Shown here: positions 58,035 to 61,000 of the stretch, piece by piece
Layout: each line of letters opens with the position of its first letter
Numbering within the stretch: the first letter of the stretch is position 1
DNA from: Scatophagus argus
Taxonomy: Eukaryota; Chordata; Actinopteri; Scatophagidae
DNA length: 64,000 nucleotides
Direction of reading: 5' to 3'
Assembly: GCF_020382885.2 (NCBI RefSeq)
Contig: NC_058493.1
Coordinates: forward strand, 28,336,999 to 28,400,998
Program-made: the position numbers and the translations under genes
The notes under the pieces: generated by a model
What the model was told of the DNA's origin: nothing
What the model saw: the letters and a program-made list of their open reading frames with translations, nothing else
Databases searched by the model: none

Positions 58035-61000
58035 TACTGTAAAACCATCTTCCTCCTCAGCCCTGCACTGCAGCTCTGATGTGGTTTTTATGTGGCTTTG
58101 GATGTGGTCGTTAGACGTTTGACAGCTTCCTCAATCTGCGGGTAAAAATCAGCTCAGAAAGAGGAAGTGAAACCGCAGCTCAGATTTCGATTTTCATTTC
58201 GGGGCTTTCGCCGGTGCTCGTCGTCTGAGGAAATAAGTTACTTTGCAGGCTTCCCAGCATCACAAACTCTTCTGTCCGCATTCGTTCTCCTGCAGTCAGT
58301 GTCATCCCAGGGAGGAGGCGAGAGGAGAGAAACCGAAACTCACATTCAGGTTTTAACCACAGCTGCGACAGAAATCAAGCCAACAAAGTCTTCAATGGCG
58401 TTCTGCGTTTTTTTTGTTTTTTAAACATTCTTTTTATTGAACATTTTCAAAATTCTAACAGCCCAGCACAGTGCATATACAGATTATATGAAATATGTAG
58501 CAAATCCACAATACATCCTCAGCAGTGGTCACAAAACAGCTTTCTGACCCTTAATGCCAAATCTTAGTTTTTCCAAAGAAATACAGTCTGATACCAAAGA
58601 CTGATACCAATAATCAGGTTCATCTCCTGCCCATTTAGTCATGACAGCCTTTCGACCCAACACGAGCAAAAAATGTACAGTGTTCTTCTGTGATCTTAAT
58701 GATTCCGGGATACGTCCCAGCGGACATAACGGCGTTCTGCGTTTTTAATTAAGTTTGGGATATCAAGAATGGAAGTAAACAAACCAGTTAAACAAAAATA
58801 AGAAAACGTTGCTGTCTTCGTAAGTGCAGCCAGAAGTGAATGTCAGAGCAGCCACTAACAAACTGATGTGTGTTTCTGAGTCCTGAAAACCCTGCACTGT
58901 GTATCATTGTCTCTGTGTGTTTGTCCATTTATATGTGTGTGTGTGTGTGTGTACTGTGTGTCCGTGTTTATCTGTGTGTGTGTGTGTGTGTGTGTGTGTT
59001 GTGTTGCAGACTATAAGCGTGGGTTTGGAGGGCAGTATGGGGTAGAGGTGGACAAGCAGGACCAGTGTGCCCTGGGCTATGAGCACAAGGAGAGCCTGGC
59101 CAAGCACGAGTCCCAGAAAGGCACAGATTACCCCCCCCCTCCCTGAGCACAACAGCCTACCCCACCTCCCGTTTCCCACTCCCCACCCCCCTCCTGATTC
59201 TTACCCCAGAAAAAAGAGCTTCTTCCCAGCTTGAATCTCCATCCTTCACGCCATCCTCCTCATCCTCAGTAACGGCTCTTTTCTTTTAAGCGGCAGACAC
59301 ACCTTCTTTACCTGACAGACGCCTTCTGTCAGATAACCCTTCACTGTTACACCCCCTCCTCCCACCTCCACCTCTGCAGCACCAGCCGATTAACATGAAC
59401 AGTGCAGACGAGCTCATCTGTTGACTCAGCTCACCCAAATTACAGAAAACCTTTTTTGTCATGTACCTCAGGTTGGCATCCTGCCCTGCGGAGAGAAAGG
59501 AATTTTGTCTGTGTCACAATATAGAAAATGTTTAAGTTACAGGCCTAACAGTTGTGAGGTTCAGAGTTCATTCTTGATCTTTGAAAAGTTCTGATATTCA
59601 GTGTGTGAGTGTTGAAGCCGAGTTATCAGGGATCGTAAATGTTCATTTTTGGCTTTGGCTGAACGTACAAAACACAGGAGAAACTTCAGAAAGATTTGAG
59701 TTTCAGTAGAGCTGTGGGTGTGCGAGAACCAGGCGATGTGATCGTCATGATTATGTGGTGACGTGTTGTTTCATAGGCTCGTGTTCTGTCTCAGCCCGCC
59801 GATAACACGTACACACTCCAGTACAGTAGGTGGTGGTTTTTGGTCCACCCATAAACACAGTAGAAGAAGAACAAGAAGTGCAGCTTGTGGTTAGTCGCTC
59901 ATGATGTCAAAGTGGCGAGGAAGCTACACTTGGTGAGCTGACCCTTCAGCATGAGCTGAATCACTTGTTCTTGTAGTTGTGGTCTCACCGTGCAGTGAGG
60001 CTGTCACTGTTTACAAAGTTAATGTTCCTCCTCGGTTCACTTGTCAGTGTTGGGTCTGTGCTGCTCAGGTGTGTTGACTTTCTGTTCACAGCCTCCTTTG
60101 TCTTCTTTTGTTGTTGTTTTATTCACGTGGAGACGATTGTGCCTCACGCAGCCTTCGGTTAGGCCCACGTCCTGTCAGTCAGCCTGCGGCTTAATGTTCA
60201 AATGCCCTCCAGCAGAAGCAGAAACGTTAATGTGGAAGTGCAGGCGTCTCCTGTGGCATGGCCCATACATTCCTACATGATATGAGGGTGTGTGCATGTA
60301 GTCACACGTCTTCAGCAGTATTCATCCCTGACTGCATATCCCCCACTGCCACGATGCTGTTTCGTTTGCTTCTGCATCCACTTTGTGCATGACGTCGTGC
60401 GACCACAGAGACCGAGCCCGAACCCTCTGCCTCATGTTACGACTCTGTCTGCTGTCGCTTTGTTTTGATCCTCCTGTCGACGGGTTTGCATGAGCTCGCT
60501 TGTCCCCCAGCAGCTCTTTTCAGTTCGGTTTATCGGTTCCTGTGAAACCAGCCTCAGTCCGCTTCATCTGAACTTTAGCAGAACAGAAACGATTTCTCCT
60601 CTGTCTCCAACAGTGTGCCAAAGGAAAGTTTCCTACATTTTTTTAAGGTCGCCTCTGGAAAACAAGTTCTGATGATGCTGACTGTGGTTGAGTCATTCAT
60701 GTAAAACAGAAACTGACCTTTGCTTTTCTCCCGTTGCTCATCAGATTATTCAAAGGGATTTGGAGGGAAATTTGGTGTCCAAAATGACCGCATGGATAAG
60801 GTAAGGAGTGTTTTTGTGCGCCCGCTTATGTGTGGAGAGCTCCGTGGTACATCTCACGTCTGTGTGGTTGACAGAGCGCAGGGACCTTTGAAGATGTGGA
60901 GAAGCCGAAGCCCTCTTACCAGAAGACCAGACCTGTGGAGGCCGGTGAGCATTCAGCATCCTCAGCTGCGTTTCGCTCACAGCTTTGAGGCAGCACGTGA

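What the first reader, a model, noticed from the sequence alone, without database searches (positions are those of the whole stretch)
58932..59146. Cortactin repeat-6 exon built to be skipped: (TG)n acceptor tract and GC donor
The exon for the sixth actin-binding repeat has TG repeats in place of a pyrimidine tract and a donor AAAG|GCACAG instead of GT, a poor match even for GC-AG introns. It is frame-neutral (111 nt, phase 1-1). The corresponding mammalian exon is alternatively spliced and its omission lowers actin affinity. Failure of the donor would add GTDYPPPP and stop, giving a truncated cortactin lacking the SH3 domain. The length-variable TG tract resembles the CFTR exon 9 arrangement, so inclusion could vary with genotype.
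Basis: partly seen in the sequence, partly recalled or inferred. Interest (0 to 1): 0.75.

Follow-up and report, generated by a model that had tools for sequence, protein, structure and literature searches.

The report
Weakly spliced cortactin repeat-6 exon
In a fish (spotted scat) gene for the actin-binding protein cortactin, the exon for the sixth repeat has unusual, weak-looking splice signals at both ends and is predicted to be both used and skipped, like the matching mammalian exon; the sequence pattern is real, but the proposed control by TG-repeat length is unproven.

Summary
The window holds a complete cortactin coding region; three public predicted isoforms from Scatophagus argus equal its protein letter for letter once exons are left out. 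The exon at 59010-59120 is as described: 111 nt, phase 1-1, (TG)13 in place of a pyrimidine tract, donor AAAG|GCACAG. By U1 pairing its donor is the weakest of 14 modelled; by pyrimidine run and fraction its acceptor is the poorest of 15, though its U content is not low. Isoform X4 contains the exon joined as the GC junction predicts; X5 and X6 lack it. Best reading: a used GC-AG cassette exon, the fish counterpart of mammalian CTTN exon 11. Reading frames from related sequences, nine of ten without organism name, leave no room for a pyrimidine run over 6 nt before the exon (10 of 10), and intron position +4 is not A in 12 of 12; +2 cannot be read there. The truncated read-through product has no support: its tail occurs in none of 198 fetched proteins. 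TDP-43 control and genotype-dependent inclusion remain inference. A known kind of thing with an interesting, apparently shared architecture.

The parts
57608..57718 (+). upstream exon (repeat 5), donor AAAG|GTACTG; skip junction 57718/60745
   Evidence: gene model
58918..58999 (+). tandem 39-nt duplication (2.2 copies), each copy with a TTTAT branch-point candidate followed by a TG run
   Evidence: Tandem Repeats Finder; branch-point candidates
58934..58952 (+). upstream TG run, 9.5 units
58967..58971 (+). branch-point candidate TTTAT, A at 58970, 40 nt before the exon (inferred)
   Evidence: yUnAy scan
58973..58999 (+). TG run, 13.5 units, between the branch-point candidate and the AG, where a pyrimidine tract is expected
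59008..59009 (+). AG of the 3' splice site
   Evidence: consistent with isoform X4
59010..59120 (+). cassette exon, 111 nt, phase 1-1, residues 263-299, cortactin repeat 6 (HS1_rep)
59042..59049 (+). two in-exon GT sites (59042, 59048) that pair better with U1 than the real donor; their use would break the frame (lengths 32 and 38 nt). 59043 is the only TAG in the 15 modelled exons
59121..59126 (+). GC donor GCACAG, weakest of 14 donors by U1 pairing
59121..59146 (+). read-through tail GTDYPPPP and TGA stop; not seen in any fetched protein
60745..60800 (+). downstream exon (start of the half repeat), accepts both the GC-donor and the skip junction
52724..63052 (+). cortactin coding exons (15 modelled), 533 aa

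Best explanation
The exon is a real, used, frame-neutral cassette exon of teleost cortactin, the counterpart of mammalian CTTN exon 11. Shown: a GC-AG intron follows it, a UG-rich acceptor without pyrimidine tract precedes it, and predicted isoforms of the same species both contain and lack it. Inferred: U1 pairs poorly with AAAG|GCACAG and U2AF poorly with the UG tract, so exon definition is marginal; UG-binding proteins (TDP-43 or CELF type) on the (UG)13 between branch point and AG push it towards skipping, and enhancers or activators that I did not identify allow inclusion. Skipping removes one 37-residue actin-binding repeat and keeps the SH3 domain, lowering F-actin affinity as reported for mammals.
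For: Three predicted S. argus isoforms equal the window's protein minus exon 7 (X4; exon 10 kept, protein as the 59120/60745 junction predicts), minus exons 8 and 10 (X5), minus 8, 9 and 10 (X6). Donor with the lowest U1 pairing of 14, acceptor poorest of 15 in pyrimidines. Repeat 6 is kept: 56 of 198 fetched proteins carry its signature, mammals among them; teleost hits with repeat 6 are 78-97% identical over the stretch scored. In 10 of 10 sequences that read from intron into the exon, residues forbid a pyrimidine run over 6 nt in the last 30 nt; in 12 of 12 that read past the donor, +4 is not A. Among the 120 best hits repeat 6 is labelled in 25, repeats 1 to 5 in 99 to 119; these are cluster representatives labelled by similarity to the fish repeats, not expression data. 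GC donors are enriched in alternatively spliced genes, and let-2 of C. elegans needs its GC for regulated splicing (PMC2490688, part 1 of 2 read). Isoforms lacking human exon 11 bind F-actin less, as cited in PMC5482648 (passages).
Against: No RNA-seq was available; the isoforms are automated predictions. Exons 7, 8 and 9 are missing from predicted isoforms without such sites. Apart from +1/+2 the donor is not extreme (three of 13 score lower), and U content before the exon is ordinary. Lack of A at +4 is not special: 5 of the gene's 13 GT donors lack it, and exon 9 shares GTAC; in five other fish models exon 9 also reads on as GT residues. TG-like residues also precede exon 9 in Micropterus and Anarrhichthys. 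No evidence for TDP-43 binding.
Confidence: 0.7

Rival explanations
1. The GC is an assembly or sequencing error and the real donor is GT; the exon is then an ordinary cassette exon with an odd acceptor.
For: One base; no read data; X4 would look the same with GT. With T at +2 the site would pair with U1 like exon 9's donor (register -3.4, duplex -5.7; exon 9: -3.7, -5.6).
Against: Three gene models with repeat 6 that look like submitter annotations (Arapaima P0085, Electrophorus voltai P0087, Etheostoma P0182) run past this donor, and 10 of 13 such teleost models, picked by eye from names, leave the exon out, as expected if programs see no GT. Indirect: a weak GT could be missed too, and it concerns other species.
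Confidence: 0.12
2. The splice sites are decaying: GT>GC plus microsatellite growth has nearly killed the exon and skipping is a by-product of drift.
For: Repeat 6 is missing from most of the 120 listed representatives; 0 of 6 lgn entries of full cortactin length in that list carry it.
Against: The frame is open, repeat 6 is conserved, X4 contains the exon, and the lack of a pyrimidine tract is shared with related sequences, which drift in one species would not give.
Confidence: 0.08
3. Donor failure yields a functional truncated cortactin ending GTDYPPPP without SH3 domain.
For: The frame does end there.
Against: Related sequences read GTDTPEHNHLP, GTDTFLSTSPN, GTWRPHF and so on; GTDY occurs in none of 198 fetched proteins, the 39 hits of a search made with this tail included. 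Absence of four poly(A) hexamers in intron 10 is weak evidence.
Confidence: 0.03
4. The unusual sites are simply tolerated and the exon is included in most transcripts; skipping is minor.
For: Isoform X4 contains it; U content of the acceptor is ordinary; GC-AG introns are a regular minority, 0.8% of human protein-coding junctions (PMC7242645 passages).
Against: X5 and X6 lack it; GC donors tend to keep closer to consensus elsewhere (PMC2490688), this one has C, A, G at +4 to +6.
Confidence: 0.15

Closest known systems
Mammalian CTTN exon 11 (repeat 6 cassette; isoforms a, b, c)
   Same: Same repeat, same position (residues 263-299 here; 264-300 in PMC12686484 passages), frame-neutral skipping.
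   Different: There PTBP1 binds intron 11 and favours inclusion (PMC5482648 section 8), and RBMS1 binds intron 10 and favours skipping; neither was tested in fish.
GC-AG (U2-type) introns
   Same: GC at 59121, AG at 60743-60744, no U12 motif found; the class is linked to alternative splicing.
   Different: Lacks consensus bases at +4 to +6, which GC donors are reported to keep more closely.
CFTR exon 9 (TG)m(T)n acceptor
   Same: TG13 close to the AG; a G-rich stretch in the exon (GGGGTAGAGG, 30 nt in).
   Different: No real T tract, no known length polymorphism, no binding data; CFTR's silencer is GGGGAAU at the exon start (PMC12171016 passages).

Membership tests
Cortactin (CTTN/HS1 repeat proteins) | HS1_rep repeats plus C-terminal SH3 domain | tested here: met
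   PF02218 with 7 stretches, PF00018 SH3_1; first 341 residues aligned to cortactin 8p94_I
Counterpart of mammalian CTTN exon 11 | encodes repeat 6 at the same place, 111 nt, frame-neutral | tested here: met
   alignment to 8p94_I; residues 263-299; mammalian residues from passages
GC-AG intron | GC at the 5' end and AG at the 3' end | tested here: met
GC-AG intron | otherwise near-consensus donor | tested here: not met
   C, A, G at +4 to +6; U1 register energy +1.3, lowest of 14; matrix score without +1/+2 fourth lowest of 14. A tendency of the class, not a strict requirement
GC-AG intron | removal in mRNA | tested here: inconclusive
   predicted isoform X4 fits this junction; no reads
Alternative cassette exon | transcripts with and without it in one species | tested here: inconclusive
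   predicted isoforms X4 against X5, X6
CFTR exon 9-like TG-controlled exon | TG run next to a poor pyrimidine tract at the 3' splice site | tested here: met
CFTR exon 9-like TG-controlled exon | TG length varies between individuals and sets inclusion | not testable with these tools
   only differences between sequences of different sources seen
CFTR exon 9-like TG-controlled exon | TDP-43 and hnRNP A1 bind and repress | not testable with these tools
   one UAG in the exon is only a hint

The most novel reading that the evidence does not exclude
Teleost cortactin keeps, by selection, an exon that is hard to splice at both ends (UG-rich acceptor without pyrimidine tract; GC or otherwise off-consensus donor), and UG-binding repressors set how many actin-binding repeats the protein carries. 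In S. argus the acceptor has grown to (TG)13, so a microsatellite allele could tune cortactin's actin affinity between individuals.
Probability: 0.15. Interest if true: 0.6.

Novelty: new member of a known kind. Interest (0 to 1): 0.36.

Why it matters
If true, it would show how a vertebrate gene keeps one actin-binding repeat optional over long evolutionary time through weak splice sites, and would offer a natural CFTR-exon-9-like test case with a harmless readout (one protein repeat). If inclusion follows TG length, cortactin activity would have a simple genetic dial. As it stands, skipping of this repeat is already known from mammals, so the gain is the cis-element architecture in fish.

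Tried and rejected
Exon-intron hairpin hiding the donor (G-rich exon, C-rich intron start): the exon-plus-intron fold is less stable than 60 shuffles, z = +1.72, against -1.27 to +0.77 for the 13 other donors; donor accessibility 0.43, within 0.15-0.56 of the others. Distal branch point forced by the long AG-free zone: not needed, a TTTAT candidate lies 40 nt upstream. Better GT or GC donor just downstream: none with register energy -2.5 or lower from 59049 to 59420. U12-type intron: no motif in the donor or the last 60 nt. The window's own assembly: not completed. Reading C or T at +2 in other species from protein: impossible, both give glycine. Counting repeat-6 presence as isoform usage: rejected, because hits are representatives of 90% clusters. 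A loose motif for repeat 6 (59 proteins) takes in at least three false matches (P0099, P0131, P0149); I use the stricter count of 56. Literature: 'cortactin' with 'GC-AG' gave 3 papers, none on cortactin splicing by title (listing); cortactin with fish splicing terms: the 10 listed of 105 do not mention cortactin (listing); fish GT-repeat splicing: nothing relevant among 10 listed of 1,214 (listing).

Full report
What is there. The window's right end holds a complete cortactin coding region on the + strand. I modelled 15 exons from the one with the start codon to the stop (52724-63052; any earlier untranslated exon was not modelled); they join into one 533-residue protein with seven HS1/cortactin repeat stretches and an SH3 domain. 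Its first 341 residues align with the cortactin chain of 8p94.

Which species. Three proteins labelled Scatophagus argus 'isoform X4, X5, X6' are identical, letter for letter, to the window's protein minus exon 7, minus exons 8 and 10, and minus exons 8, 9 and 10. The window is therefore S. argus, spotted scat, a percomorph fish, or something indistinguishable from it in this gene. These are automated predictions (the 'X' naming is recalled as NCBI's); I saw no reads.

Is the exon used? X4 contains exon 10 followed by exon 11 with exactly the residues that the GC junction gives; X5 and X6 lack exon 10. So public predictions contain both inclusion and skipping. Exons 7, 8 and 9 are optional in the same set although their sites are ordinary, so weak sites are not required for skipping in this gene.

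How weak are the sites? Pairing of each donor with the U1 5' end (recalled sequence) in the standard register gave +1.3 kcal/mol for exon 10 and -1.3 to -12.2 for the other 13; free duplex energy -3.0 against -5.1 to -12.2. A weight matrix from the other 13 donors gives 3.17 against 6.17 to 12.43, but without +1/+2 the score is 3.83 and three of the 13 are lower, so most of the weakness is the C itself. The acceptor has the shortest pyrimidine run (3 nt) and lowest pyrimidine fraction (0.57) of 15, and the longest AG-free zone, 129 nt. U+G makes up 0.97 of the 30 nt before the AG, next highest 0.73; U alone is 0.50, which ties for third of 15, so it is a tract interrupted by G, not one poor in U. 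A TTTAT branch-point candidate lies 40 nt upstream and the TG run fills the space between it and the AG; the unit is tandemly duplicated. Two GT sites inside the exon pair better with U1 but would break the frame.

Related sequences. Two contig scans found no relative, but the protein search returned nine reading frames from contigs without organism name (P0189-P0197) that run through this exon and into both its introns, and spliced models that run past the donor. I take the nine as fish from their repeat-6 similarity. They can be decoded in part. Before the exon, the last 10 codons in P0183 (Mola, a spliced model that runs in from the intron) and P0189-P0197 allow at most 6 pyrimidines in a row (10 of 10), against actual runs of 8 to 12 before the window's exons 7, 8, 9 and 11. 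Left out of that count: three models whose residues before the repeat do not run straight into DYK (P0095, P0097, P0139; shown) and the dog model P0135, whose bound is 8. After the exon, 12 of 12 sequences (P0085, P0087, P0182, P0189-P0197) exclude A at +4, and 10 of 12 have AC at +3/+4. Some are near-duplicates (P0189/P0190, P0194/P0195), so independent lineages are fewer. Five of the gene's 13 GT donors also lack A at +4, and exon 9 reads on as GT residues in P0095, P0097, P0107, P0139 and P0183, so the donor part of this is a modest signal. Position +2 cannot be read, since GGC and GGT both give glycine. The TG run is not constant: Mola and P0191 have room for only a few units. TG-like residues also precede exon 9 in Micropterus (P0187) and Anarrhichthys (P0188).

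Is the GC old? Indirect hint only. By a strict signature 56 of 198 fetched proteins carry repeat 6; nine are the unspliced frames, leaving 47 spliced models, of which 3 run past the donor (P0085 Arapaima, P0087 Electrophorus voltai, P0182 Etheostoma), all looking by name like submitter annotations. Of 13 teleost models of that look that I picked by eye from names (12, plus P0182; the divergent goby model P0149, which has no repeat 6 by the strict signature, was not among them), 10 omit repeat 6, 3 run past, none uses the site, while repeat 5 is present in all 13. Programs blind to GC would do this, but so would programs that follow a dominant skipped transcript or dislike a weak GT. Read-through also occurs after other repeats: seven of the 181 proteins fetched, and P0183.

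Frequency. Repeat 6 is labelled in 25 of the 120 best hits, repeats 1 to 5 in 99 to 119. The labels are nearest matches to this fish's repeats, and non-fish entries with six repeats (for example P0082, P0113) get no repeat-6 label. Of the lgn entries in that list, 0 of 6 carry it; of seven further lgn entries, none is labelled with it, most of them divergent. Hits are representatives of 90% clusters, so none of this can be read as usage.

Mechanism. Shown: the sequence, the shared features above, the predicted isoforms. Inferred: poor U1 and U2AF recruitment, repression by UG binders such as TDP-43 on (UG)13, and lower actin affinity when skipped. Precedents: CFTR exon 9, where TDP-43 on the UG repeat and hnRNP A1 on a GGGGAAU exon element repress (PMC12171016 passages); exons with short UG motifs skipped on TDP-43 overexpression (PMC11163724 passages); let-2 and GC donors in alternative splicing (PMC2490688, part 1 of 2); GC-AG genes more prone to alternative splicing (PMC7242645 passages); mammalian exon 11 skipping and weaker F-actin binding (PMC5482648 passages and section 8; PMC12686484 passages). 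Exon 10 has the only TAG among the 15 exons, in GGGGTAGAGG, a hint at most.

Rejected parts. The exon-intron hairpin, the truncated product, and a distal branch point as necessity.

Verdict. Observation confirmed; interpretation partly supported; a new fish member of a known kind of alternative exon, whose lack of a pyrimidine tract is shared with related sequences. The genotype-dial idea is open and testable.

Noticed in passing
19495 to beyond 32126: A liprin-alpha gene lies upstream of cortactin on the same strand (liprin-alpha coiled-coil match at 31746-32126); the low-quality Scomber japonicus model P0198 joins an N-terminus like the ORF at 19495 to cortactin.
   Followed up: partly
8540-8956 and 13196-13672: Two similar open stretches with zona pellucida (ZP-C) domain matches, probably two neighbouring ZP-domain genes.
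   Followed up: partly
6788-7098: A 57-nt tandem array, 5.5 copies, 96% matches, open in several frames on both strands; no Pfam match above its cut-off in the two frames tested.
   Followed up: no
P0187, P0188 (before exon 9 of other fish): TG-like residues also stand before the repeat-5 exon in Micropterus and Anarrhichthys; TG runs may be common at cortactin acceptors in fish.
   Followed up: partly
59131-59200: Start of intron 10 has a run of nine C, and another frame of it reads PEHNSLPHLP, close to PEHNHLPHLP in P0189 and P0190, suggesting related intron sequence next to the exon.
   Followed up: partly
P0086: An Oreochromis niloticus protein also carries a Mustela putorius label in nr, probably a mislabelled record.
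   Followed up: no
60293, 60386, 60487: Three TGCATG motifs (the RBFOX core, recalled) in intron 10, downstream of the exon; no more than one in any other modelled intron.
   Followed up: no
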